This document shows positions 13,152-33,914 of a stretch of DNA of 38,630 nucleotides, in pieces. Within the stretch, counting starts at the first letter, position 1, and each line of letters opens with the position of its first letter. The notes beneath the pieces are model-generated. The model saw only the letters and a program-made list of their open reading frames with translations. It was not told the DNA's origin and made no database searches. The position numbers were made by a program, and so were the translations under genes. The DNA comes from an uncultured Oscillospiraceae bacterium. Its GTDB lineage: Bacteria; Bacillota; Clostridia; Oscillospirales; Oscillospiraceae. The DNA lies in NCBI GenBank assembly GCA_947628805.1, contig CANRBG010000014.1:1-38630 (forward strand), in the 5' to 3' direction.

Positions 13152-13164
13152 CCGAAACGAGAAC

Positions 13165-13356
13165 CAAACCTGCCCTGTGCGTGGTTTCAAGGGCCCGGTT
13201 GGACCCACATCTATTATAAGGGACGCCATATACGGCGGCGGAGCGCAGGCCTCCCGGCCTTTCGGCCGGATGTTGGAAGCACGGAAACCGCCATGAGGCG
13301 ACCCACCTGCCGAGCTGTGCAGGTTACAAATCTGGCCCCCACGGCAGGGCGGGCTT
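13165..13356 (+). ncRNA. ssrS: 6S RNA
   Basis: About 190 bases with no convincing protein frame. A closing stem forms between the 5' end (CTGCCCTGTGCGTGG, about 13170-13184) and the 3' end (CCACGGCAGGGCGG, about 13339-13352). The 3' half (GCGACCCACCTG, then AGGTTACA and CTGGC) lines up with the 3' half of E. coli 6S (GCGACGACACATTCACCT, then GGGTTACAGCCTG). A GC-rich hairpin (CGGCC-TTTC-GGCCG, near 13254-13266) lies in the middle. 6S RNA mimics an open promoter and binds RNA polymerase-sigma70/A, mainly in stationary phase. Ends are approximate; no clear promoter is seen, so it may be processed from the DUF1292 transcript. Confidence 0.8.
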
Positions 13357-13394
13357 CGTCGGAGCAAGGGAAACTTTGCTCCGACGACTTTTTT
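13357..13394 (+). terminator. Terminator of the 6S RNA
   Basis: Arms CGTCGGAGCAA (13357-13367) and TTGCTCCGACG (13376-13386), then ACTTTTTT. Confidence 0.9.
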
Positions 13395-13486: not shown

Positions 13487-14785
13487 ATGAAAAAACTGTT
13501 GACGGTGCTGGCCGTGCTGGCGCTGTGCCTGGGCCTGAGCGCGTGTGGGCATTTTGTCAGCATCATGCCCGGCTCCGCCGCCGTGGATGAGAACAATCCG
13601 GACCTGCCCCAGACCCTGGACAACTTTGAGGAAAAAGGGCTCCTGGAATTCATGGGCTGGCAGGAGTTCGCCGCCCGGTACTATTCCGACACGCCCATCG
13701 CCCTGAGCATCCGTACCGCCCAGGGCGGATACGCCTCCCCCGTCTTTGACCGGACCAGCATCATCGCCGCCTGCGACGCCCTGCGGGCCATGACGGTGAC
13801 GGGCCGGTCCGACGCCGTGCCGGCGGAGGACCAGCAGACGGTCTACACCTTCACCATGAAAAACGGCGAGGAATACGCCGTGGCTTTCTCCGGGGGCGAG
13901 CTGTGCCTGTACGCCGGCCAGTACACCGTTACCGGACTGAGCAAGCTGTCCGCCCTGGAATTCCCCGGCTATTCCAATGCCTTTGACGTGTTCGACCTGT
14001 ATTACGACGAGGACATCCGCGCTTTCGCGGACAATTTCAACGTCAACACCCCCGTATCCGTCGGCCGCCGGTATAACGGCGGCGCCACCATGACCAGCCA
14101 GGACCCGGCGGTGGTCAGCCACGCGTTCCAGCTTTTGCAGGGGGCGCTCATCGACCGGGTGGAGGAGAGCCCCGACCAGAACATCGACCTGACCCAGCTG
14201 ACGGATTACGTGTTCACAATGACCGACGGGAGCTACTACACCTTTACCTTTGCCGGACCCTGCCTGCAGGTGACGGCCTCCGACGACTACGGCCCGGTCT
14301 ATTACTGGCTGAGCGGCGCCGACGAGCTGGCCGCCATGGAGATATTGCCGGAGAGCACGGTGCCCACCTTTGCCGGCGGGCCTCTGTACGGCATGCGGGA
14401 GGAGATCGCCCGGGGCCTGTCCGCCGCCAACGGCGAGCTGCCGGACGTGTCGATCGTGGGCGTGTACGTGGACTACACCATCGACGGCCAGCACGGCTAT
14501 CTGACCCTGGACGCCGCCGACGGGGCCGCTTTCGTCCAGCGGGTGGCCTATATCAACGCCGCCGCTGAGATCACGGAGCCGGTGGGCGAGAAGATCACCG
14601 TGTACGTGACGCTGTCCGACCAGTCCGGCCCCATCATCGTCTTCACCGGCGACACGGTCCAGCAGATGGTGGGCTACGACCACCAGTGCGACGCCGCCGC
14701 CATGAGCGACCTGCGCGCCACTATCCTGGCCCTGGCTCAGGACCCGGATAACGTCGGACCCTCTTTCGGAAGTACATCGGGCTAA
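13487..14785 (+). CDS. Lipoprotein of unknown function with three internal repeats
   Basis: 432 residues, start after GGGAAGGGAG. A lipoprotein signal peptide ends in the lipobox LSAC, with the modified Cys near residue 20, so the protein should be anchored to the outer face of the membrane. I recognise no family. The mature part contains three related units, each a helix followed by a beta hairpin. The hairpins are TVYTFTMKNGEEYAVAFSG, DYVFTMTDGSYYTFTFAG and ITVYVTLSDQSGPIIVFTG. It stands alone between its own promoter and the structured repeat at 14792. Binding or sensing is possible, but no catalytic motif is visible. Confidence 0.8.
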   Translation: MKKLLTVLAVLALCLGLSACGHFVSIMPGSAAVDENNPDLPQTLDNFEEKGLLEFMGWQEFAARYYSDTPIALSIRTAQGGYASPVFDRTSIIAACDALRAMTVTGRSDAVPAEDQQTVYTFTMKNGEEYAVAFSGGELCLYAGQYTVTGLSKLSALEFPGYSNAFDVFDLYYDEDIRAFADNFNVNTPVSVGRRYNGGATMTSQDPAVVSHAFQLLQGALIDRVEESPDQNIDLTQLTDYVFTMTDGSYYTFTFAGPCLQVTASDDYGPVYYWLSGADELAAMEILPESTVPTFAGGPLYGMREEIARGLSAANGELPDVSIVGVYVDYTIDGQHGYLTLDAADGAAFVQRVAYINAAAEITEPVGEKITVYVTLSDQSGPIIVFTGDTVQQMVGYDHQCDAAAMSDLRATILALAQDPDNVGPSFGSTSG

Positions 14786-14791
14786 GTTATT

Positions 14792-15012
14792 TCGCGAAAA
14801 TGCAAGCATTTCCGCGAGGGGATCGCGGCTCACATACGCGCATAAACGCTCCTGCCATTGGCAGGAGCGTTTCCACACTTCGTGAGCCGATAAGTGTTTT
14901 TTCCGACGCGCATGTCGCCGGAAAAAACGATCTGAATTTATTCGCGCTTCCGAGCGCGAACTCTGCGAGGCTTGGTCAGGTTATCGGCAGCGAGCGCGAA
15001 CTCTGCGAGGCT
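14792..15012. repeat. Four-stem structured repeat, copy A
   Basis: Fills the convergent gap between the lipoprotein gene and alaX. Stem 1 (14792-14817) pairs TCGCG with CGCGA and AAATG with CATTT. Stem 2 (14826-14889) closes with CGGCTCAC/GTGAGCCG and holds an inner hairpin with 13-base arms (14844-14872). Stem 3 (14896-14928) has 10-base arms GTTTTTTCCG/CGGAAAAAAC and a 13-base loop with CATGTC. Stem 4 (14941-14960) is TTCGCGCT/AGCGCGAA with a TCCG loop. The tail CTCTGCGAGGCT (14961-14972) follows. A 22-base piece covering half of stem 4 and the tail is repeated at 14991-15012. The inner hairpin may also terminate both genes. A second copy is at 20752. Confidence 0.85.
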
Positions 15013-15020
15013 GGGCGAGA

Positions 15021-16169
15021 CTATTTCCCGAAAAAGGCTTCCAGGTCCGATCGGGCGGCTGTGCAGCGGCCGGAGATCATCCGCTCCTTGCCGCCGCCTT
15101 TGGCTTGCAGGGCCGGGCCGTTGGCCTTGATGAAAGCCCGCATGTCCGCCGTCCGGCTTGCCATGACGAACCGCCAGTCCCCGTCGGCGCCGGAAAATAC
15201 GCCGCACACGCCCCCGCACTTCTCCATGCCGGCGTTGGCCAGCAGCCGCAAAGACTCCTCCTCACCCTGGAAGAAAATCAAAATGTTCCCCGCCGTCTCC
15301 GTCAGGGAGGCGGCCCGGTCCTCCGCCAGGGTCCGGCGCAGGCCGGCCAGCTCCCGCTTCAGCTCGTCCCGCTGGCCCAGCAGCTTTTCCACCCCGGCGG
15401 CCACGTCGGTCTGAGGCGCGTTCAAAAGCGCCGAGATCGCCGCCGTGGCCCCGTACCGGGCCCGGTAGTCCTCCAGAGCCGCCCCGCCGGACTTCATCCA
15501 CAGCCGGACCCCGCCCCGGTGGCGCATGAAGTCCAGGATCTTGATAAGGCCGATCTGCCCCGTGGAGGATACATGGGGCGCGCAGCAGGCGCACCGGTCT
15601 ATGCCCTCCACGGTGACGATGCGCACATCGTGGGTAAGAGCCAGCTTGCTGCGGTATTCCATCCCCGCCAGCTCCGCCGGGGCCGGGAACCGGGCCGTCA
15701 CCGGCCGGTCGTCCCACACCGCCCGGTTGGCCGCCCGCTCCAGTTGGTCCAGCTGTTCCCGGGTCAGCTCCCCGCTGAAATCCACCGTACACCCCTCGTC
15801 GGTCAGGTGAAAGCCCACGTTCTCATAGCCGTATTCGGCCCGGACCAGGCCGGAGACGATGTGCTCGCCGGTGTGGTTCTGCATCCGGCCGAACCGGACC
15901 GGCCAGTCGATCTGGCCCCGGACCGTCTCCCCCACCGGCAGGGGCCCGTCCGTATAGTGGACGACGGCGCCGTCCTTTTCATGGGCGTCCAGCACCCGCG
16001 CGTCCCCCAGGGTCCCCGTATCCGCGGCCTGGCCGCCGCCCTCCGGGAAAAAGGCGGTGGCGTCCAGGATAACGGCCCACCCCTTTTTCCCCGCCTGCTG
16101 ACAGTCCAGGACCCGGGCCTCGAAGGACCGGATATAGGCGTCCTCGTAATAGAGCTTTCTGGTGTCCAT
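15021..16169 (-). CDS. alaX: Alanyl-tRNA editing protein AlaX (long form with DHHA1 domain)
   Basis: 382 residues. This free-standing editing enzyme hydrolyses mischarged Ser-tRNA(Ala) or Gly-tRNA(Ala). An AlaRS-like beta domain (FFPEGGGQAADTG) leads to the zinc/catalytic site HTGEH (His99, His103) and C195xxxH199 in CCAPH. A coiled-coil linker (about 255-290) follows, then a C-terminal DHHA1 domain ending in a glycine-rich motif (ALQAKGGGKERMISG). Length and order match the long AlaX class. GGGGAGG precedes the ATG. Its upstream region is shared with the divergent DUF1294 gene. Confidence 0.93.
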   Translation of the reverse strand: MDTRKLYYEDAYIRSFEARVLDCQQAGKKGWAVILDATAFFPEGGGQAADTGTLGDARVLDAHEKDGAVVHYTDGPLPVGETVRGQIDWPVRFGRMQNHTGEHIVSGLVRAEYGYENVGFHLTDEGCTVDFSGELTREQLDQLERAANRAVWDDRPVTARFPAPAELAGMEYRSKLALTHDVRIVTVEGIDRCACCAPHVSSTGQIGLIKILDFMRHRGGVRLWMKSGGAALEDYRARYGATAAISALLNAPQTDVAAGVEKLLGQRDELKRELAGLRRTLAEDRAASLTETAGNILIFFQGEEESLRLLANAGMEKCGGVCGVFSGADGDWRFVMASRTADMRAFIKANGPALQAKGGGKERMISGRCTAARSDLEAFFGK

Positions 16170-16172
16170 CGG

Positions 16173-16201
16173 TTGACCTCCCCGGAAAAAAAGTGTATAC
16201 T
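16173..16201 (+). promoter_or_regulatory. Promoter of the DUF1294 gene, very close to the start codon
   Basis: TTGACC (16173-16178), 17 bases, TATACT (16196-16201). Only six bases (GCGTTT) separate the -10 box from the ATG at 16208, so transcription should start at or next to the start codon. Confidence 0.75.
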
Positions 16202-16207
16202 GCGTTT

Positions 16208-16489
16208 ATGGATATCTATACCGTTTTGTTCATCTATCTGGAGACGGTGAACCTGCTGACGCTGGGGGCTTTCGGCCTGGACAAACGCCGTGCTCGGGTC
16301 CACCGGGAGCGGATCCCGGAGGCCGTGCTGATGGCCATGGTGGCCGTGGGAGGCGGCGTCGGGGCCCTGGCGGGGATGCTTCTTTTCCATCACAAGACCC
16401 GCAAGAAGCTGTTTTCCGTGGGCGTGCCGGTGATCCTGGTCTGCCAGATAGGTTTTTTTCTCTGTCTTTTTTGGGCCGTATCCCACTGA
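16208..16489 (+). CDS. DUF1294 small membrane protein
   Basis: 93 residues from the ATG at 16208. An in-frame GTG at 16193 would start inside the promoter. No ribosome binding site precedes either, which suggests a leaderless message. The protein has about three hydrophobic segments and the DUF1294 pattern: a short N-terminal helix, then LGAFGLDKRRAR, RIPEAVLMAMVAVGGGVGALAGMLLFHHKTRKKLF and a closing membrane helix. The family is common in bacteria and has no established function. It is divergent from alaX and 43 bases upstream of psuG, with which it may be co-transcribed. Confidence 0.87.
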   Translation: MDIYTVLFIYLETVNLLTLGAFGLDKRRARVHRERIPEAVLMAMVAVGGGVGALAGMLLFHHKTRKKLFSVGVPVILVCQIGFFLCLFWAVSH

Positions 16490-16532
16490 ACGGCCCTGTT
16501 TATTGTAAAGTTTTTACGGAGGTGCGTCAAGC

Positions 16533-17447
16533 ATGGATCAGTATCTGGACATAAAACCCGAGGTGGCCGAAGCCCTGGCGGCCGGCAAGCCCGTGGTGGC
16601 GCTGGAGAGCACCATCATCTCCCATGGCATGCCCTGGCCCCAGAACGCCGAGACCGCTTTCGCGGTGGAGGATACCATCCGCGCCCACGGGGCCGTGCCC
16701 GCCACGGTGGCCGTCATCGGCGGCCGGCTGAAGGCGGGTCTGGAGAAAGACGAGATCGAATACCTGGCCAAAAAGGGCCAGGCCGTCACCAAGGCCAGCC
16801 GCCGGGATCTGCCGGTGCTGTGCGCCCGGCATGAGGACGGTGCCACCACCGTGGCCGCCACCATGATCGTGGCCGCCCTGGCGGGGATACAGGTGTTCGC
16901 CACCGGCGGCATCGGCGGCGTCCACCGGGGCGCGGAGGTCACCATGGACATCTCCGCCGACCTGGAAGAGCTGGCCCGCACGCCGGTGCTGGTGGTCTGC
17001 GCCGGGGCCAAGTCCATTTTGGACCTGGGCCTGACGCTGGAATATCTGGAGACAAAGGGCGTGGCCGTGTGCGGCTATCAGACCGACGAGCTGCCCGCCT
17101 TCTATACCCGCACCAGCGGCTTCGGGGTGGATTTCCGGGCCGACAGCCCCGCCGAGCTGGCGGCGGCCTTCCATGCCCAGCGGGCCCTGGGCTATCCCGG
17201 GGGCATGCTGTGCACCAACCCCATCCCGGAAGCGTATTCCATGGACCCGGCGGTCATCAACGCCGCCATCGACCAGGCCGTGGCCGAGAGCGTGGCCCAG
17301 GGGATCAAGGGCAAGAAGGTGACTCCCTTCCTGCTGGCCCGGGTCAAGGACCTCACCGGCGGGGACAGCCTGGAATCCAACATCCAGCTGGTCCTCAATA
17401 ACGCCGCCCTGGCCGCCGACACCGCGGCGGAGCTGTGCAGGCTGTGA
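16533..17447 (+). CDS. psuG: Pseudouridine-5'-phosphate glycosidase
   Basis: 304 residues. It reversibly splits pseudouridine 5'-phosphate into uracil and ribose 5-phosphate in the cytoplasm. Conserved stretches are ALESTIISHGMPWPQN (Glu25), VTKASRRDLP (Lys87, the probable Schiff-base lysine) and FATGGIGGVHRG. The C-terminal part also matches the family (GFGVDFRADSPAELA and NPIPEAYSMD). Length is typical. The kinase partner psuK is not adjacent, so the substrate would come from a kinase elsewhere or from RNA turnover. GGAGGTG precedes the ATG. Confidence 0.95.
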   Translation: MDQYLDIKPEVAEALAAGKPVVALESTIISHGMPWPQNAETAFAVEDTIRAHGAVPATVAVIGGRLKAGLEKDEIEYLAKKGQAVTKASRRDLPVLCARHEDGATTVAATMIVAALAGIQVFATGGIGGVHRGAEVTMDISADLEELARTPVLVVCAGAKSILDLGLTLEYLETKGVAVCGYQTDELPAFYTRTSGFGVDFRADSPAELAAAFHAQRALGYPGGMLCTNPIPEAYSMDPAVINAAIDQAVAESVAQGIKGKKVTPFLLARVKDLTGGDSLESNIQLVLNNAALAADTAAELCRL

Positions 17448-17475
17448 CTTACAAAAACTGACAGCAAAAAAAGGG

Positions 17476-17504
17476 TTGACAAACCGAAAAGCCCGGTTTA
17501 TAAT
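17476..17504 (+). promoter_or_regulatory. Consensus promoter of the tryptophan transport operon
   Basis: TTGACA (17476-17481), 17 bases, TATAAT (17499-17504): a full consensus match upstream of the T-box. Confidence 0.93.
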
Positions 17505-17510
17505 GCAGAC

Positions 17511-17806
17511 AATTTAATACGATAAACCGTTGATGAAGAGTAAGTAACCTTTCCAGGTGTGTCACAGAGAGCCGCGGGGGCTGGGAGCGCGGTACAGGCC
17601 GGAATGTGCGAATGGACTTCGGAGGGCGATCGGAAGGCAGGCTCGCCTGCCCTATGTGAGACGGAGAAGGCGCTCCGTGAAAAACGCCGCCGCGTGATGG
17701 CGCGGAGCAAAGCGGACGCTTTTCAAAGCGTCAAGCCGGGTGGCACCGCAGGAAGTTTACAACATCCTGTCCCAGCAGAAATGCAGGGACAGGATGCTTT
17801 TATTTT
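17511..17806 (+). promoter_or_regulatory. T-box riboswitch, tryptophan-specific
   Basis: The T-box proper TGGCACCGC is at 17741-17749. Stem I is recognisable (GATGAAGAGTAAG, CAGAGAGCCG and GAATGGACTTCGGAGGG). The specifier triplet in that context is TGG (17613-17615), so the leader should bind tRNA(Trp). The bulge TGGC also fits the G discriminator of bacterial tRNA(Trp). The terminator (arms CATCCTGTCCC 17763-17773 and GGGACAGGATG 17786-17796, then CTTTTATTTT) would be replaced by the antiterminator when uncharged tRNA(Trp) is bound. It therefore turns on transport when tryptophan is short. Confidence 0.93.
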
Positions 17807-17817
17807 GCAGGAGGTAC

Positions 17818-17856
17818 ATGAAAATGTTTATACTGTCCAAACGATGGCGGGCGTGA
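17818..17856 (+). CDS. Possible 12-residue leader peptide containing Trp
   Basis: Immediately after the T-box terminator, GCAGGAGG is followed at a proper distance by ATG and the frame MKMFILSKRWRA, then TGA. It ends 74 bases before the substrate-binding protein gene. The strong site suggests translation. The single Trp near the end could add a second layer of tryptophan sensing, or this may be a chance frame or a remnant. Confidence 0.35.
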   Translation: MKMFILSKRWRA

Positions 17857-17930
17857 AGGACACCCAGAAAACAGGAACATCTACCGACCCAAAAAACTAA
17901 AATGAGAAAGCATATAAGGAGGCTCTCAAA

Positions 17931-18959
17931 ATGAAAAAGATCGTTTGCACCGTACTGGCCCTTGTCATGGTCCTGAGTCTGTCCGCGGCGGCCTTCGCCG
18001 ACGGCGAGACCTACAAGGTGGGCATCTGCAACTACGTGGACGACGCGTCCCTGAACCAGATCGTGGAGAACATCCAGTCCCAGCTGGAAGCCATCGGCGA
18101 GGAAAAGGGCGTCACCTTCGACGTCAGCTATGACAACCCCAACGGCGACCCCGCCGTCATGGAGCAGATCATCCAGAACTTCATCGCCGACGAGGTGGAT
18201 CTGATGGTGGGCGTGGCCACCCCTGTGGCCATGGCTATGCAGGCCGACACCGAGGATAACCAGATCCCCGTGGTGTTCTCCGCCGTCTCCGACCCGGAGG
18301 CCGCCGGCCTGGTGGAGAGCAACGACGCCCCCGGCGCCAACATCACCGGCACCAGCGACTTTTTGGACACCGCCGCCATCTTCGACCTGGTCTTCGCCCA
18401 GGATCCCGAGGCTGACCTGATCGGCCTGCTGTACGACCCGGGCCAGGAGTCCTCCGCCACCTTCATCGCCGCCGCCAAGGCGCTGCTGGACGAGAAGGAG
18501 GTCGCCTATGAGGAATACACCGGCACCACCGCCGCCGAGATCCAGATGGCAGTCCAGTCTCTGATCGCCGACGATGTGGACGCGGTGTTCACCCCCTCCG
18601 ACAACTCCATCATGACCGCTGAGCTCAGCATCTACGAGGACCTGGCCGAGGCCGGCATCCCCCACTACGCCGGGGCCGACTCCTTCGCCCTGAACGGCGC
18701 TTTCCTGGGCTACGGCGTGGACTACGCCAACCTGGGCGTGGAGACCGCCAACATGATCGCTCAGATCCTGCTGGACGGCGCCGACCCTGCGGAGCTGCCT
18801 GTCATGACCTTCGATAACGGCACCGCCACCATCAACACCGACGTGTGCGAGCAGATCACCGGCAAGACCTTCGAGGAACTGGAAGAGCTGTTCGCCCCCA
18901 TGTGCACCGCCGTGAAGCCCATCGAGACGGCCGAAAGCTTTGGCGAAGCCGCTGAGTAA
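17931..18959 (+). CDS. trpX: Tryptophan-type ABC transporter substrate-binding protein (TrpX family)
   Basis: 342 residues of the COG2984 ABC substrate-binding family. After the signal peptide the domain runs YKVGICNYVDDASLNQIVENIQ, VGVATPVAMAMQ, IPVVFSAVSDPEAAGLV, TGTSDFLD and YAGADSFALNGAFLGYGVDYANLG. It should deliver tryptophan or a related amino acid to the membrane permease; the Trp T-box supports tryptophan. The signal peptide (MKKIVCTVLALVMVLSLSAAAFA) ends in an AxA-type site with no lipobox cysteine, unusual for a binding protein in a Gram-positive-type cell. AAGGAGG precedes the ATG. It is first of three transporter genes. Confidence 0.92.
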   Translation: MKKIVCTVLALVMVLSLSAAAFADGETYKVGICNYVDDASLNQIVENIQSQLEAIGEEKGVTFDVSYDNPNGDPAVMEQIIQNFIADEVDLMVGVATPVAMAMQADTEDNQIPVVFSAVSDPEAAGLVESNDAPGANITGTSDFLDTAAIFDLVFAQDPEADLIGLLYDPGQESSATFIAAAKALLDEKEVAYEEYTGTTAAEIQMAVQSLIADDVDAVFTPSDNSIMTAELSIYEDLAEAGIPHYAGADSFALNGAFLGYGVDYANLGVETANMIAQILLDGADPAELPVMTFDNGTATINTDVCEQITGKTFEELEELFAPMCTAVKPIETAESFGEAAE

Positions 18960-18980
18960 GACCTGAAAAACCTATTGGGA

Positions 18981-19000
18981 CAGGGGCCGCGAGGCCCCTG
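18981..19000 (+). other. Hairpin between trpX and trpY
   Basis: CAGGGGCC (18981-18988) and GGCCCCTG (18993-19000) with a GCGA tetraloop and no T-run. It probably stabilises the upstream mRNA or lowers downstream transcription, fitting the need for excess binding protein. Confidence 0.55.
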
Positions 19001-19033
19001 CCCCTATGACCTTGTTCTGGAGGAGAACTATCC

Positions 19034-19963
19034 ATGTCACTATCCGCCATATGGGGGCTGGCGCAGACGGCGCTGGAGCTGGGTCTGACCTGCTCGCTGA
19101 CCGTGCTTGCCCTGTTTTTGAGCTATTCCATGCTGAACGTGTGCGACCTGTCCACCGACGGCTGCTTCACCCTGGGGGCCACGGTGGGGGCGGTGGTGGC
19201 CGTCGCCGGCCACCCCTACCTGTCCATCCCCGCCGCCATGGGCGCGGGCATGCTCAGCGGCCTCGTCACCGCCGTGCTGCAGACCCGCATGGGCATCGAC
19301 AGCCTGCTGGCGGGCATCATCGTCAACACGGGCCTTTACTCCGTGAACATCGCCGTTATGGGCGGATCGTCGCTTTTGAACATGAACAAGACCGACACCG
19401 TGTTCACGGGCTTGAAATCCCTGCTGGCGGATACGCCCCTGGCGGGGTTCCAGGACCTGATCATCCCCCTGCTGGCGGTGGTATTGGTCATCGTGTTTCT
19501 GGCGCTGTTTCTGCGGACCCGGCTGGGCCTGGCTATCCGGGCCACCGGCAACAACCCGGACATGGTCCGTTCCTCCTCCATCAACCCCATTTTCACCACC
19601 ACCGTGGGCCTGTGCGTGGCAAACGCCTTCACGGGCCTTTCCGGGTGCCTGCTGGCCCAGGGGCAGAAGTCCGTGGACATCAACATCGGCTCCGGCATGG
19701 TGACCATCGCCCTGGCGAGCCTTCTCATCGGCCAGACCTTTATGGGCCGGGGCTCCATCGCCAAGCGGGCCTCCGGCGTGGTGATCGGCTCCATCGTCTT
19801 CCGGCTGGTGTATACCATCGCTCTGCGGCTGAAAATGCCCGCGTTCATGCTGAAGCTGGTCAGCTCCGTGATCGTGATCATCGCCATCGCGGGACCCTAC
19901 TTCAAGACCCAGCTGCCTCTGCTCAAGCGCCGGCTGGCCGGGTCCGGGAAGGAGGACAGCTGA
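19034..19963 (+). CDS. trpY: ABC transporter permease (TrpY family)
   Basis: 309 residues with about eight to nine membrane segments. It belongs to the branched-chain-amino-acid type permease superfamily: CDLSTDGCFTLGA near the start, RTRLGLAIRATGNNPDMVRSSSIN as the cytoplasmic loop that contacts the ATPase, and SGCLLAQGQKSVDINIGSGMVTIALASLLIG. It forms the transmembrane path for the substrate carried by the upstream binding protein. GGAGGAG precedes the ATG. It ends one base before the ATPase gene. Confidence 0.92.
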   Translation: MSLSAIWGLAQTALELGLTCSLTVLALFLSYSMLNVCDLSTDGCFTLGATVGAVVAVAGHPYLSIPAAMGAGMLSGLVTAVLQTRMGIDSLLAGIIVNTGLYSVNIAVMGGSSLLNMNKTDTVFTGLKSLLADTPLAGFQDLIIPLLAVVLVIVFLALFLRTRLGLAIRATGNNPDMVRSSSINPIFTTTVGLCVANAFTGLSGCLLAQGQKSVDINIGSGMVTIALASLLIGQTFMGRGSIAKRASGVVIGSIVFRLVYTIALRLKMPAFMLKLVSSVIVIIAIAGPYFKTQLPLLKRRLAGSGKEDS

Positions 19964-19964
19964 C

Positions 19965-20750
19965 ATGCTCACCCTGAAAAACATCTCCAAGACCTTCAAC
20001 CCCGGCACGGTGAACGAAAAGACCGCCCTGTCCGGCTTAAATCTGCACCTGGACAAGGGGGACTTCGTCACCATCATCGGCGCCAACGGGGCGGGCAAGA
20101 GCACCCTCTTCAACGCCATCGCCGGCAGCTTTCTGCCCGACACCGGCTCCATCACCCTGGACGGCAAGGACGTGACGTTCCAGCCGGAATTCAAGCGGGC
20201 CAAGACCATAGGGCGGCTGTTCCAGGACCCCATGCGGGGCAGCGCTCCCGGCATGACCATCGAGGAAAACCTGGCTTTGGCGGCGGGAGGCGGCGGCTGG
20301 CTCAGCCACACCTCCAAGGCGGAGAAGGCCGCTTTCCGGGACCGGCTGGCCCTGCTGGACATGGGTCTGGAGGACCGGATGCGCCAGCCGGTGGGGCTGC
20401 TGTCCGGCGGCCAGCGGCAGGCTCTGACGCTGCTGATGGCTACCATGGTCCCCCCCAAGCTGCTGCTGCTGGACGAACACACCGCCGCCCTGGACCCGGG
20501 CACGGCGGAAAAGGTCCTGGCCCTCACCCAGTCCATCGTCCGGGAGGGGGGTCTCACCTGCCTGATGATCACCCACAACATGTCCTCGGCTCTGGAGCTG
20601 GGCAACCGGACGCTGATGATGGACGCGGGGCATATCCTGCTGGACCTGAAAGGGGATCAGCGGGAGGGCCTGACCGTGGAGGACCTGCTCAGGATGTTCA
20701 AAGAAAACGTGGGCAAGGCATTGGATAATGACCGCATGCTCTTATCATGA
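19965..20750 (+). CDS. trpZ: ABC transporter ATP-binding protein (TrpZ family)
   Basis: 261 residues. Walker A is GANGAGKST (about 39-47), the signature LSGGQRQAL, Walker B LLLLDEHTAALD and the switch His in ITHNMSS. It powers import through the permease encoded just upstream. The start is one base after the trpY stop, so translation is probably coupled. Its stop is two bases before copy B of the structured repeat, which is the only terminator-like sequence at the end of this operon. Confidence 0.93.
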   Translation: MLTLKNISKTFNPGTVNEKTALSGLNLHLDKGDFVTIIGANGAGKSTLFNAIAGSFLPDTGSITLDGKDVTFQPEFKRAKTIGRLFQDPMRGSAPGMTIEENLALAAGGGGWLSHTSKAEKAAFRDRLALLDMGLEDRMRQPVGLLSGGQRQALTLLMATMVPPKLLLLDEHTAALDPGTAEKVLALTQSIVREGGLTCLMITHNMSSALELGNRTLMMDAGHILLDLKGDQREGLTVEDLLRMFKENVGKALDNDRMLLS

Positions 20751-20751
20751 T

Positions 20752-20930
20752 CGTTTGCATGCAACGCATGCAAACGAGAGGGCTTCGGCCCGCTGCAGCG
20801 CAAAGCGCCCCCATCCATCGGATGGGGGCGTTCACGTTTGCGGGCCGCAAAGAATGATCTCCGAGGCACATGTCCCCGGAGATCATGATCTCACTTTATT
20901 CGGCTCTGCGGAGCCGAACTCTGCGAGGCT
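20752..20930. repeat. Four-stem structured repeat, copy B
   Basis: Fills the convergent gap between trpZ and rpmE. Stem 1 (20752-20776) is CGTTTGCATG/CATGCAAACG. Stem 2 (20786-20847) closes with CGGCCCGC/GCGGGCCG and holds an inner hairpin with 11-base arms (20806-20830). Stem 3 (20854-20886) has ATGATCTCCG/CGGAGATCAT with a 13-base loop containing CATGTC. Stem 4 (20899-20918) is TTCGGCTC/GAGCCGAA with a TGCG loop. The tail CTCTGCGAGGCT is at 20919-20930. The linkers between stems 2-3 (6 bases) and 3-4 (12 bases) are exactly as long as in copy A, although most arms differ in sequence. Confidence 0.85.
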
Positions 20931-20938
20931 GACATCTT

Positions 20939-21142
20939 TTACTTCGCCAGGCCGTACTTCTTGTTGAACTTATCCACGCGGCCGCTGGTGTCCACCAGCT
21001 TCTGCTTGCCGGTGAAGAACGGGTGGCACTTGGAGCAGATCTCCACGGTGATGTTCTCCCGGGTGGAGCCGGTCTCGATCACGTTGCCGCAGGCGCACCG
21101 GATGGTGGTCTTGTAGTACTTGGGATGGATGCCCTCTTTCAT
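20939..21142 (-). CDS. rpmE: Ribosomal protein bL31, zinc-binding type
   Basis: 67 residues of the large-subunit protein bL31. The start [10 protein letters not shown] and the four zinc ligands (two in CACGNV, two in [13 protein letters not shown]) define the C+ form; the zinc-independent paralogue lacks them. Length is normal. The gene has its own promoter (21222-21250) and ends 8 bases from copy B of the structured repeat. Confidence 0.97.
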
Positions 21143-31442: not shown

Positions 31443-31464
31443 ATCATTTCTCCTCCGGGAGCTA

Positions 31465-31794
31465 TTATAGTACACACGAGCGCGTTTTTGAAGCGTCTGG
31501 CGAAAATTTTGTCACGACCCCGACTCTTTGAGAACTTTTTGGCTGGGCTGGTGAACGCAGCGGCAGAAAAGCGAAAAACGGCTCTTTTTCGCCCCGCTCT
31601 TTACCCGGCGAGAGACAGTCAGGACCACCCGCATAGTGCAGTAGTACCCAGCGGCAAATCATGCTCCGGTCTGCATGATACTCCTTCTCCAGTGTTCGTA
31701 CAGAGACGTGTTCAGCTAGATGCTTGTTTACGATCTCGGCCTTTTCTTTCGGTGTCCACGTCCGTCTTTTTTGGCCTTTCTTCATAATTTCCAC
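31465..31794 (-). pseudogene. Remnant of an IS3-type transposase (N-terminal HTH part)
   Basis: The first 50 or so residues (RRTWTPKEKAEIVNKHL, VRTLEKEYHADRSMICRWV) are a transposase helix-turn-helix of the IS3/IS150 OrfA kind. After LLHYAGGPDCL the frame continues into sequence rich in Pro, Lys and Ser that does not look like transposase. The rest of the element, including any DDE integrase part, is absent from the window. The change of character coincides with one arm of a 30-base inverted repeat. Confidence 0.7.
31617..31646. repeat. Left arm of 30-base inverted repeat
   Basis: Begins AGTCAGGACCACCC and ends GCAGTAGTA. It is the reverse complement of 31866-31895 at 29 of 30 positions. It lies inside the broken transposase frame and encodes part of LLHYAGGPD. 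Confidence 0.9.
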
Positions 31795-31818
31795 TCCCTA
31801 TCCTTCATTTTAACATAA

Positions 31819-31861
31819 TGAAAAAGGTAGGCACATGGTTGTTTTCCATGTGTCTACCTTT
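31819..31861 (-). terminator. Terminator of the XRE regulator gene
   Basis: Sixteen-base arms (31823-31838 and 31846-31861) with one G-U pair and a seven-base loop. On the minus strand TTTTT and CATT follow. Confidence 0.8.
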
Positions 31862-31865
31862 ATCT

Positions 31866-31895
31866 TACTACTGCGCTATGCGGGTGGTCCTGACT
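31866..31895. repeat. Right arm of 30-base inverted repeat
   Basis: Begins TACTACTGC and ends GGTGGTCCTGACT. It contains the stop codon and last codons of the XRE regulator. In the plus-strand frame it encodes LLRYAGGPD, nearly the same peptide as the left arm on the minus strand. Confidence 0.9.
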
Positions 31896-32178
31896 CTCTG
31901 TTTTTCTCTCGTAAGTGGCTGATCAAACTATGGACCACTTGAATATCCGCCTCTGTAAGCCCCGCTGTACTGATAGTCGAGGTGCCGTTCACACCCAGAA
32001 GGTAATCGGTCGACACCTTAAAGATGGCCGCAAGTTCCACAACATATTGCGTGGACGGTACGGATATTCCCATTTCCCAGGCATTCACGCTGGAGCGAGT
32101 AATACCAAGCTGCCGGGCAAGAGACGCCTGCGTGATATTTGCCTGCTCTCTTAACGCTTTTATCCGGTCTGCTACCAT
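31876..32178 (-). CDS. XRE-family helix-turn-helix repressor
   Basis: 100 residues, start after AGGAGTGGTGAG. The N-terminal 65 residues are a Cro/CI-type HTH (RIKALREQANITQASLARQLGITRSSVNAWEMGISVPSTQYVVELAAIFKVSTDYLLG). A short C-terminal helix for dimerisation follows (LTEADIQVVHSLISHLREKN). The last six residues (ESGPPA) are encoded by the right arm of the inverted repeat, so the original C-terminus may have been altered. It is divergent from the ATP-grasp/HAD gene, which it probably controls. Base composition here is visibly richer in A and T than in the flanking chromosome. Confidence 0.88.
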   Translation of the reverse strand: MVADRIKALREQANITQASLARQLGITRSSVNAWEMGISVPSTQYVVELAAIFKVSTDYLLGVNGTSTISTAGLTEADIQVVHSLISHLREKNRESGPPA

Positions 32179-32217
32179 CTCACCACTCCTTCATTAGCAT
32201 GGTAAAACAGTCCGGTA

Positions 32218-32231
32218 GATATTACATTATC
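32218..32231. promoter_or_regulatory. Possible repressor operator
   Basis: GATATTACATTATC is an imperfect palindrome (10 of 14 positions) between the XRE gene and the divergent ATP-grasp/HAD promoter. Confidence 0.35.
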
Positions 32232-32247
32232 TTTTTGATGTTTATAA

Positions 32248-32276
32248 TTGACATTTCTTTCTTGGTGCGCTATACT
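32248..32276 (+). promoter_or_regulatory. Promoter of the ATP-grasp/HAD gene
   Basis: TTGACA (32248-32253), 17 bases, TATACT (32271-32276). Confidence 0.88.
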
Positions 32277-32327
32277 GAACAGCGGGTCGGTCTCTGTGAG
32301 GTCAGATTGGTTGTTGAGGTGGCGCAA

Positions 32328-33914
32328 ATGAACATACTCTTTACAGGCGTGGGCAGAAGGATCGAGCTTTTACAGGCATTCCGAAGTGCCGCGCTGGCCC
32401 TTGATAAAGACTTAAAGCTATACGGTGCCGACTTGTCCGGAACGGCGCCGGCATTGGCCTATTGCGATCATACGCGGCAGGTCGCCGGCATGCGGGAACC
32501 ATCGTATATCCCTGATCTGCTGGAGATCTGCAAGGCGGACCATATTGATCTTCTGATCCCAACGATCGACACAGACCTGCTCATATTGAGCCAAAACAGG
32601 GATGCCTTTGAAAAGCTTGGCACGCGGGTCCTGATCAGCTCCCCGGAGATGATACGACTGTGCAGAGACAAGAGCCTTACTTCGGCGTTTTTTGTGAAAT
32701 GTGGGCTTCACGCTCCCATGCCGGCAACTGACTGGAGAGAGTATTCCGGGGGTTTCCCCGCCTTTATCAAACCAAGAGACGGCAGCAGCTCCATCAACGC
32801 TTTCCGGATCGACAGTCCTGAAGAATTGAGATTATATGCCCAGAGGATAAAAGACTATGTGATCCAACCATTTGTAGACGGAACAGAATATACGATCGAT
32901 ATCTTTTGTGACTGGGATGGCGAGCCGATCTCGATCGTGCCCCGTGAACGAGTGCAGGTGCGGGCAGGAGAGGTCCTTAAAACGAGGATTTTTTTGGATC
33001 AGACCATGATCCAGGAGAGCCGGTGTCTTTGTAAGGCATTTAAGCCCTGCGGGCCATTGACGGTCCAGTTGATAAGAGACGCGCAGGGAACAGACTGGTA
33101 CATAGAGATAAACCCCCGTTTTGGGGGCGGTGCTCCCTTGTCCATGAAGGCCGGTGCAAGAAGTGCTGAAGCTATATTAAAGCTTCTATCCGGTGAAAAT
33201 GTCTCATACTACACAGATATTGCCGACGGTGCTGTGTATAGCCGTTTTGATCAGTCCGTCTGTATCGAGGAGGGCCAGAACAAGATCCGCGGTGTAATTT
33301 TTGACCTGGACGATACCCTTTACAGCGAAAAGGAATACGTTCGGTCCGGGTACAAGGCGGTTTCAGAGTATCTTTGCGGCGAATACGAAGACCGGCTATG
33401 GCAATACTTTATGGCCGGAAAACCGGCTATAAGCGAGTTGCTGAAGGACCTTGGCAGAGAGACAGAGAAAGCGGCCGTATTGGATGTCTATCGAAATCAC
33501 CGCCCGAAGATCCACCTCTATGACGGTGCCGCCGAACTCCTGCGAACGCTGCGGCAGCGGGGAATAAAGATCGGGCTCCTCACCGATGGAAGACCCCAAG
33601 GGCAGCGGAACAAAATCGACGCGCTTGGTCTGCAACCACTAGTGGATGACATTATTATCACAGACGAGTTGGGCGGGAGCCAGTTCAGAAAGCCTGTCGA
33701 TATCGCGTTTCGGATCCTGCAGTACCGTTGGCGGCTTCCCGCAGGCGATATCGTCTATGTCGCGGACAATCCCACAAAGGATTTTCAAGCACCCCAACAG
33801 ATCGGCATAAAAAGCGTATTCTTTGCTAATACGGACGGGATATACTCTCTCCAGGAAAACAGCAACTATCAATACACTTTGTCCTCCTTGCGCGAATTGC
33901 CGGACCTGCTTTGA
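32328..33914 (+). CDS. ATP-grasp ligase fused to a HAD-family phosphatase
   Basis: 528 residues from the ATG at 32328 (GAGGT nine bases upstream). Residues 1-315 are a CarB/PylC-type ATP-grasp enzyme: pre-ATP-grasp fold starting ILFTGVGRRIELL, nucleotide residues FIKPRDGSSS (about 147-155), QPFVDGTEYTIDIF, and metal-binding EINPRFGGG (260-268). Residues 322-528 are a complete HAD domain: DLDDT (nucleophile Asp326), LLTDG (Thr419), Lys455 and ADNPTKD (480-485). ATP-grasp enzymes join a carboxylate to an amine through an acyl phosphate, while HAD domains remove phosphate. The substrate is unknown. The gene is visibly lower in GC than its surroundings and sits with an XRE regulator and transposase debris, so recent acquisition is likely. 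Confidence 0.87.
   Translation: MNILFTGVGRRIELLQAFRSAALALDKDLKLYGADLSGTAPALAYCDHTRQVAGMREPSYIPDLLEICKADHIDLLIPTIDTDLLILSQNRDAFEKLGTRVLISSPEMIRLCRDKSLTSAFFVKCGLHAPMPATDWREYSGGFPAFIKPRDGSSSINAFRIDSPEELRLYAQRIKDYVIQPFVDGTEYTIDIFCDWDGEPISIVPRERVQVRAGEVLKTRIFLDQTMIQESRCLCKAFKPCGPLTVQLIRDAQGTDWYIEINPRFGGGAPLSMKAGARSAEAILKLLSGENVSYYTDIADGAVYSRFDQSVCIEEGQNKIRGVIFDLDDTLYSEKEYVRSGYKAVSEYLCGEYEDRLWQYFMAGKPAISELLKDLGRETEKAAVLDVYRNHRPKIHLYDGAAELLRTLRQRGIKIGLLTDGRPQGQRNKIDALGLQPLVDDIIITDELGGSQFRKPVDIAFRILQYRWRLPAGDIVYVADNPTKDFQAPQQIGIKSVFFANTDGIYSLQENSNYQYTLSSLRELPDLL

What the first reader, a model, noticed from the sequence alone, without database searches (positions are those of the whole stretch)
14792..20930. 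A two-copy, four-stem structured element with covarying arms, locked between convergent genes
Copies at 14792-15012 and 20752-20930 share one plan: stem 1 with loop core ATGCAA-GCAT; a closed stem 2 holding an inner hairpin; stem 3 with 10-base arms and a 13-base loop; stem 4 with 8-base arms and a 4-base loop; then the tail CTCTGCGAGGCT. Linkers are the same length (6 bases between stems 2 and 3, 12 between 3 and 4, the latter GATCT...TTTA). Arms differ but stay paired: GTTTTTTCCG/CGGAAAAAAC against ATGATCTCCG/CGGAGATCAT, and TTCGCGCT/AGCGCGAA against TTCGGCTC/GAGCCGAA. Inside the stem 3 loop (A-C-GC-G-CATGTC-G-C against A-G-GC-A-CATGTC-C-C) the second and twelfth bases swap C-G for G-C. Both copies start within 7 bases of a plus-strand stop and end 8 bases before a minus-strand stop. 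This is compensatory evolution of a fold. I infer a dispersed structured element (terminator-like RNA, REP-like mobile palindrome, or sRNA), not a known family.
Basis: seen in the sequence. Interest (0 to 1): 0.88.

Follow-up and report, generated by a model that had tools for sequence, protein, structure and literature searches.

The report
Modular hairpin cassettes between gut-bacterial genes
Related gut bacteria carry up to dozens of copies of a roughly 180-base cassette made of DNA hairpins in the gaps after their genes, and in the group studied its central tip looks like a two-way transcription stop where two genes face each other but is mostly a short hairpin where genes are read in series.

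Summary
Two copies (14790-14972, plus a stray half-copy to 15012; 20751-20930) share the described four-stem plan. They belong to a dispersed family: 22 distinct places in the incomplete host genome, 23 of 24 other genomes of the genus, and 74-93 matches per genome in 4 of 5 genomes of a genus from another family of the order. No Rfam family matches. The inference of RNA compensatory evolution is not supported. Stem pairs are almost purely Watson-Crick and strand-symmetric (0.4-1.4% G-U at variable pairs, against 21% in 6S RNA of the same genus), and hairpin variants reassort between sites, as DNA palindromes exchanged as blocks would. The copies are not locked between convergent genes: most sit sense-oriented right after a stop codon, often between codirectional genes, where the tail GAGG can serve the next gene as Shine-Dalgarno site. 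New finding: in the focal genus the tip of stem 2 matches gene layout. A strong hairpin with T on both sides occurs in 33 of 41 convergent but 4 of 66 codirectional copies. Best reading: a modular palindromic repeat domesticated as bidirectional terminator between convergent genes and read-through spacer in operons. Termination and transposition are inferred; the tip rule was not seen in other clades.

The parts
14790..14817 (+). Copy A stem 1, 5 bases after the stop codon of the + gene ending at 14785
14826..14889 (+). Copy A stem 2 (outer arms CGGCTCAC/GTGAGCCG)
14844..14872 (+). Copy A tip module: 13-bp hairpin AAACGCTCCTGCC-ATT-GGCAGGAGCGTTT, terminator-like in both directions; same tip at the orthologous convergent site in G002 (L255)
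14896..14928 (+). Copy A stem 3 (10-bp arms, 13-base loop)
14941..14960 (+). Copy A stem 4 (8-bp arms, 4-base loop)
14961..14972 (+). Copy A tail CTCTGCGAGGCT (contains GAGG)
14992..15012 (+). Extra half-copy: 3' arm of stem 4 plus tail, 8 bases before the opposing stop codon
20751..20777 (+). Copy B stem 1, directly after the stop codon at 20748-20750
20786..20847 (+). Copy B stem 2
20804..20832 (+). Copy B tip module: GC-rich hairpin with weak T-tracts; relatives with the same gene pair but no full element have a canonical-looking terminator in this gap
20854..20886 (+). Copy B stem 3
20899..20918 (+). Copy B stem 4
20919..20930 (+). Copy B tail, 8 bases before the stop codon of the - gene 20939-21142 (ribosomal protein L31; name recalled from its sequence)

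Best explanation
The two copies belong to a dispersed, modular palindromic repeat of Oscillospirales. It lies sense-oriented directly behind a stop codon and carries exchangeable hairpin modules. I infer that it spreads and exchanges modules at DNA level and has been domesticated as a 3'-end/intercistronic cassette. Between convergent genes the stem 2 tip holds a bidirectional terminator-like hairpin that ends both transcripts. Inside operons the tip is a short hairpin that lets polymerase through, and the fixed tail can supply a Shine-Dalgarno GAGG for the next gene. Shown: family, placement, orientation, tip/layout association in the focal genus, strand-symmetric Watson-Crick arms, reassortment of stem 4, conservation and decay at orthologous sites. 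Inferred: transposition or recombination as the carrier, termination, read-through and use of the tail by ribosomes.
For: Family and spread. Orientation: genus codirectional copies 69 sense, 1 antisense; other clades 39 to 14. Start of the element: of 111 copies with a sense gene within 330 nt upstream, 102 have a stem 1 hairpin of at least 7 bp in the first 45 nt, and 95 of these start within -3 to 7 nt of the stop codon's end. Tip against layout: host genome long/convergent 7, long/codirectional 1, short/convergent 0, short/codirectional 9 (p 4e-4); other genomes 22, 3, 7, 49 (p 7e-11); one copy per site, all genomes, 19, 3, 7, 29 (p 6e-7). Second measure, sites not thinned: strong tip hairpin 33 of 41 convergent, 8 of 66 codirectional; with T on both sides 33 and 4. 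L31 site: the host genome has the full element and no terminator-like site in the gap; G014 (truncated element, no tip) and G002, G010 and G011 (no full element) have a canonical-looking bidirectional terminator there (by eye). hprK-murB site: full, partly deleted and stem4-plus-tail-only forms in different species; in the 7 of 17 gaps that end in an element tail, the tail GAGG stands at ribosome-binding distance before murB. Reassortment: stem 4 variants identical in 16 of 69 same-site pairs (23%) and 1513 of 6601 different-site pairs (23%). G-U at variable pairs 0.41% (81 rows) and 1.4% (17 rows) in the element, 20.7% in 6S RNA.
Against: No expression data. The terminator scan (at least 5 T in 8) flags neither window tip, and the commonest T counts at strong convergent tips are 4 and 3 in the two 12-nt windows (16 of 33), so termination would not be canonical. 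A cruder hairpin measure shows no layout association in G030's genus (p 0.13) or the rest of the order (p 0.76). Exceptions: long tips between codirectional genes (L064, L253, L257, L287) and 7 short calls between convergent genes, of which L074 and L083 have neither a long tip with a mismatch nor a GC-rich stem 1. GAGG before murB is also present in species without the element and absent in the 4 gaps where the start was visible, two of which hold element remnants, so it is not proof that the tail is used. The tip score cut-off was set after the printouts were seen. Gene calls are from my own codon-usage caller. The extra genomes were sampled from the best-scoring, capped listing. No mobilising enzyme was identified and target-site duplications were not established.
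Confidence: 0.58

Rival explanations
1. A purely selfish miniature palindromic element. It inserts or survives downstream of genes because that is harmless; copies with a strong hairpin are lost from operons, so the tip/layout match is only a filter and the element does nothing for the cell.
For: Copies are gained or lost and truncated at single sites; pneumococcal BOX, RUP, SPRITE and IS are likewise over-represented between convergent genes, which their authors say may be seen as evidence of mobile, parasitic entities (PMC3049150, passages).
Against: A filter alone does not explain why 29 of the 36 classed convergent copies carry the long tip (6 more convergent copies with composite tips were not classed), nor the missing native terminator at the L31 site of the host genome (one site).
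Confidence: 0.22
2. A true structured RNA (sRNA, riboswitch or processing element) under classical RNA compensatory evolution.
For: Strong sense orientation behind genes and a strong fold.
Against: G-U is nearly absent and strand-symmetric (19 G-T, 23 A-C, 3861 Watson-Crick, 44 other, which picks the best-pairing frame) while 6S RNA of the same genus has 20.7% G-U at variable pairs; stem 4 variants are no more alike at the same site than elsewhere; no Rfam match.
Confidence: 0.08
3. A protein-binding or supercoiling site (like gyrase- or IHF-binding BIMEs; recalled) that relieves torsion between genes, with termination as a by-product.
For: Conserved stem 3 loop core and nearly invariant tail; strand-symmetric DNA palindromes.
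Against: Does not by itself predict the swap of tips with gene layout or the closeness of the tail to start and stop codons.
Confidence: 0.12

Closest known systems
BOX elements of Streptococcus pneumoniae (with RUP and SPRITE)
   Same: Composite, modular, intergenic stem-loop repeat with an optional inner module; BOX, RUP and SPRITE are enriched between convergent genes and SPRITE may have been co-opted as terminators (PMC3049150, passages).
   Different: Here a near sense-only orientation behind stop codons in the focal genus, a swappable tip that matches gene layout, and a tail that can serve as ribosome-binding site. Sequences were not compared.
REP / BIME repeats (GTAG and CGTC super-families)
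   Same: Dispersed intergenic DNA palindromes.
   Different: REPs are 20-40 bp with a GTAG or CGTC tag at one end (PMC3733652, passages); this is about 180 bp, four-stemmed, most often starts at (A)GTCG, and high-copy genomes G002, G011 and G030 have no Y1 transposase match.
Paired DNA uptake sequences used as terminators (Neisseria, Pasteurellaceae)
   Same: A genome-wide repeat co-opted as terminator hairpin; in N. meningitidis the paired form is commonest between convergent genes (PMC1852404, passages).
   Different: Uptake signals are about 9-11 nt with generally 1000 or more copies; here 22 places in the host genome and a four-part element.
Bidirectional intrinsic terminators
   Same: The tips of most convergent copies are GC-rich hairpins with A on one side and T on the other.
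   Different: Nested in the tip of a larger palindrome and replaced by short tips between codirectional genes; T-tracts mostly weak.

Membership tests
REP / BIME (RAYT-mobilised) | 20-40 bp palindrome with an unpaired GTAG or CGTC tag at one end | tested here: not met
   Element is about 180 bp with four stems; of 102 stem 1 starts the commonest are AAGTCG (20) and TAGTCG (16), and ACGTCG occurs once among the 15 commonest listed. Definition from PMC3733652 passages.
REP / BIME (RAYT-mobilised) | Linked REP-associated Y1 transposase | tested here: not met
   PF01797 has no match in G000, G002, G011 and G030, which have 23, 22, 22 and 89 model matches; 16 of 40 genomes have one. Assemblies are incomplete. 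For CGTC REPs a dedicated transposase also seems lacking, so this speaks only against the RAYT type.
BOX (pneumococcal) | Modular stem-loop repeat with variable inner module | tested here: met
   Short, long and composite tips in one frame, also at the same site in different species.
BOX (pneumococcal) | boxA, boxB and boxC sequences | not tested
   No BOX sequence was compared; no membership is claimed.
Rfam RNA families | Score at or above a family's gathering cut-off | tested here: not met
   Only 6S RNA (13164-13359) reaches it in the window; the best scores on the two copies are 18.7 bits (cut-off 70) and 17.9 bits (cut-off 90).
Rho-independent terminator | Stable GC-rich hairpin followed by a T-tract | tested here: inconclusive
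   Strong hairpin with T on both sides in 33 of 41 convergent copies by a loose count, but no hit at 5 T in 8 in the two window copies.
Rho-independent terminator | Transcripts end there | not testable with these tools
   No transcript data available.
Structured RNA with compensatory evolution | G-U tolerance on the transcribed strand exceeds A-C | tested here: not met
   Variable pairs: element 0.41% G-U, 0.25% A-C (81 rows, model-fitted alignment) and 1.4%, 0% (17 rows, MAFFT); 6S RNA 20.7% and 0.6% (29 rows, MAFFT).

The most novel reading that the evidence does not exclude
A bacterial genus keeps a recombining pool of palindromic hairpin modules that assemble, at gene boundaries, into a 3'-end cassette fitted to the local gene order: terminator tip for convergent genes, read-through tip plus ribosome-binding tail in operons. 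Module exchange between sites, not point mutation, would then be the way these genomes rewire transcript ends.
Probability: 0.35. Interest if true: 0.82.

Novelty: new variant of a known kind. Interest (0 to 1): 0.66.

Why it matters
Dispersed palindromes in bacteria are usually debated as either selfish or useful. Here the same repeat occurs with and without a terminator-like tip, matched to gene layout and comparable at orthologous sites, so selfish spread and domestication can be told apart by direct tests. It also warns that paired changes in both arms of a stem do not prove an RNA function when whole hairpins can move between copies, and it offers a marker family in poorly studied gut bacteria.

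Tried and rejected
Of the 80 loci listed there, 79 had a model match at E 0.001; the Planctomycetota record L195 had none, so it is probably a chance hit. REP/RAYT mobilisation not supported. RNA-type compensatory evolution rejected after the 6S control. A layout association in other clades was sought and not found with a cruder measure. Opposite-strand model matches of about 21-27 bits over full copies look like echoes of the stem 3 palindrome and were not counted as copies. Solo tails and truncated copies exist, so the tail is not exclusive to full elements (L014, L019, L021). Rows dropped: of 124 genus rows 6 lacked a recognisable tail: L047 and L052 echoes, and copies L065, L077, L090, L252; L077 is codirectional with a short tip, L065 and L090 convergent with long tips, L252 convergent with its tip not resolved. 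Paper searches for the element, its tail letters, or repeats in Flavonifractor, Faecalibacterium or Oscillospiraceae found no description (the one paper with the tail letters, listing only, concerns a diatom); RepRanger (PMC12306157, passages only) holds no word starting with Oscillospir. PMC8040213 (candidate RNAs in human microbiomes) was seen in a listing only; its supplements were not read and may hold this element.
Full report
WHAT IS THERE. Both copies have the described plan: stem 1, stem 2 with an inner hairpin, stem 3, stem 4, tail. Copy A's own tail ends at 14972; a further half of stem 4 plus tail reaches 15012. Each copy starts within 5 bases of a + strand stop codon, and copy B's tail and copy A's extra tail end 8 bases before an opposing stop codon.

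A FAMILY, NOT A PAIR. The tail AACTCTGCGAGGCT has 15 exact and 5 one-mismatch places in the host genome (1.72 Mb, 82% complete); most end a full element. I aligned 17 full copies, the two of the window included, leaving out the half-copy at 15012 and the truncated or solo tails L014, L019 and L021, and built a covariance model. It finds 23 matches in the host genome, one of them an opposite-strand echo, so 22 distinct places, 17 of which built the model. Of 24 other genomes of the genus 23 have 1-30 matches; of 15 genomes from other families of the order only G030 has any, with 89. In G030's genus 4 of 5 genomes have 74-93. Among public named records 79 of 80 listed loci match; their titles are nearly all Oscillospiraceae, Ruminococcaceae, Clostridia, Clostridiales or Eubacteriales, including Flavonifractor sp. 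An82 and Pseudoflavonifractor sp. An85. Rfam has nothing at its cut-offs.

HOW THE ARMS CHANGE. In 17 host copies 99.4% of stem 3 and 4 cells pair, and 12 of 20 pairs have changes on both sides; four of five measures exceed all 500 shuffles, the fifth does not (130 of 500), and all slides lie lower. RNA helices normally drift through G-U. Over 219 distinct copies stems 3 and 4 hold 3861 Watson-Crick cells, 19 G-T, 23 A-C and 44 others (the script takes the best-pairing frame, which favours Watson-Crick). Counted on RNAalifold pairs, variable pairs of 6S RNA in the same genus show 20.7% G-U and 0.6% A-C (29 sequences, MAFFT); those of the element show 1.4% and 0% (17 host copies, MAFFT) and 0.41% and 0.25% (81 copies, alignment fitted to my model). 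So pairing is kept at the level of the DNA palindrome, with no sign of a preferred transcribed strand. One copy per site, stem 4 variants are uncoupled from stem 3 (p 0.50) and from the stem 3 loop (p 0.22); weak or borderline coupling is seen for stem 3 with its own loop (p 0.03), stem 3 with stem 1 (p 0.04) and stem 4 with stem 1 (p 0.05). At orthologous sites in different species stem 4 is identical in 16 of 69 pairs (23%), the same as between different sites (1513 of 6601, 23%); stem 3 is 42% against 24%, its loop 35% against 18%, stem 1 25% against 2%. Hairpins, stem 4 above all, seem to be exchanged between copies. That can make double changes in one step, and I find it a better account than stepwise compensation. 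How each variant first arose is not shown.

WHERE IT SITS. I wrote a small codon-usage gene caller. In a first set of 152 copies from all clades 137 had both flanks called; the upstream gene was sense in 120. For the focal genus I added 80 stretches from seven genomes, taken from the best-scoring, capped listing. Of 124 rows 6 were dropped for lack of a recognisable tail, two of them echoes. The remaining 118 copies, from 22 genomes, gave 69 sense-codirectional, 42 convergent, 1 antisense, 1 divergent and 5 with a flank missing. In other clades sense to antisense was 39 to 14. Stem 1 starts within -3 to 7 nt of the stop codon in 95 of the 102 copies where it was found (111 examined). In 30 of 41 convergent copies the tail ends -2 to 18 nt from the opposing stop, and in 36 of 66 codirectional copies 1 to 20 nt before the next start. 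In several of these, for example GCGAGGCTTTTATG, the tail GAGG is the only Shine-Dalgarno-like motif visible at that distance; others have their own motif after the tail. Host examples sit between a response regulator and a histidine kinase, between two ABC permease genes, and between an HPr kinase and murB (names recalled from the translations).

THE TIP MATCHES THE GENE LAYOUT. I noticed this in the host genome and noted it before fetching further genomes; the numeric cut-off was set later, with the sequences in view. Class long means a perfect hairpin score of 24 or more in the 40 nt at the tip. Composite tips, an unrelated repeat of about 110 nt nested there, were left out: 6 convergent, 7 codirectional, 1 antisense. 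Host: long 7 convergent, 1 codirectional; short 0 and 9. Other genomes: long 22 and 3; short 7 and 49 (p 7e-11). One copy per orthologous site, all genomes: 19, 3, 7, 29 (p 6e-7); without the host 13, 2, 7, 21 (p 2.5e-4). By eye, three of the seven convergent short calls (L069, L292, L316) are long tips with a mismatch, L300 and L068 have a strong GC-containing stem 1 instead, and L074 (composite-like tip) and L083 remain exceptions. A second measure, composite copies included and sites not thinned, gives 33 of 41 convergent against 8 of 66 codirectional, and 33 against 4 with T on both sides. A cruder measure found no such link in G030's genus (23 copies) or the rest of the order (54 copies), so the rule is shown for one genus only.

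TWO SITES FOLLOWED ACROSS SPECIES. L31 site (copy B): 30 of 31 genomes have the gene; 27 gaps were read, the rest lie at contig ends. Only the host has the full element, and the scan finds no terminator-like site in its gap. G014 has a truncated element without a tip in front of a canonical-looking bidirectional terminator; G002, G010 and G011 have no full element, only short possible scars or another repeat, and have such a terminator; G012 shows a stem 1-like remnant. This fits replacement of the native terminator by the tip, but it is one site. hprK-murB site: of 30 loci, 17 gaps were read and 5 more usable ones. G000 and G014 are full, and so is G009 (L079); G047 keeps most of an element but no tail; G021 lacks stem 2; G001 and G020 keep parts of stem 1, stem 4 and tail; G013 and G045 keep only stem 4 and tail; G004 and G046 keep other remnants; G002 reads into a stem 1 remnant; the rest show no clear element. 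GAGG stands before murB in 14 of the 17 gaps, 7 of them with an element tail, but also in species without the element; in the 4 gaps with the start in view murB has AAGGA instead. So the tail can be the ribosome-binding site where it abuts the start, but GAGG alone is no proof. 28 of 72 sites in the 118 copies are shared by two or more genomes, so copies are often inherited.

MECHANISM. Most likely the element is an old mobile palindrome, or a self-exchanging one, now used as a boundary cassette: terminator-like tip where two transcripts meet, short tip where an operon must be read through, tail as ribosome-binding site. The carrier is unknown: no REP-type Y1 transposase was found in the host or in three high-copy genomes. 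Termination is inferred from structure and layout; both window tips fail a strict T-tract scan.

KNOWN RELATIVES AND NOVELTY. It works most like BOX and SPRITE of pneumococcus and like uptake-sequence terminators (passages only), and resembles REPs in being a dispersed palindrome (passages only), but it fails the REP tag, size and RAYT tests. I found no description in nine paper searches, within the limits of an open-access library. I file it as a new variant of a known kind.

Noticed in passing
window 13164-13359 (+): A 6S RNA gene (RF00013, 67.3 bits) with a strong terminator-like hairpin at 13356-13387; 28 of 31 genomes searched in the genus have one.
   Followed up: partly
L015, L017, L073, L251, L268, L272, L297 (stem 2 tips): A second dispersed repeat of about 110 nt (CGTCGTCGGAACTCG...CTCCTCTCCCC...GGGGACCCC) nested in the tip of stem 2; at some orthologous sites one species has it and another a short tip.
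   Followed up: partly
L336, L340, L368 (L31 gaps of G011 and G009, hprK gap of G020): Other structured repeats with CCCCCTTGTCAAAGGGGG-like hairpins occupy the same gaps in other species, so these gene boundaries seem to take up several repeat families.
   Followed up: no
L134 5600-6740: One full element followed by two tandem copies with an unrelated insert in stem 3, and then a solo tail (by eye).
   Followed up: no
L028, L031, L035, L036, L042 (viral contigs): Contigs filed as viral carry element matches (up to 87 bits); whether these are prophages or mis-sorted host DNA is open.
   Followed up: no
stem 3 loop, positions 4 and 10: The common loop cores mostly have C..T (GCACATGTC) or T..C (GTACACGCC) at two positions that cannot pair, a linked change without Watson-Crick pairing; a protein-binding site is one thought.
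   Followed up: no
window 31443-33233: Nearly 1.8 kb without a confident gene call by my caller.
   Followed up: no
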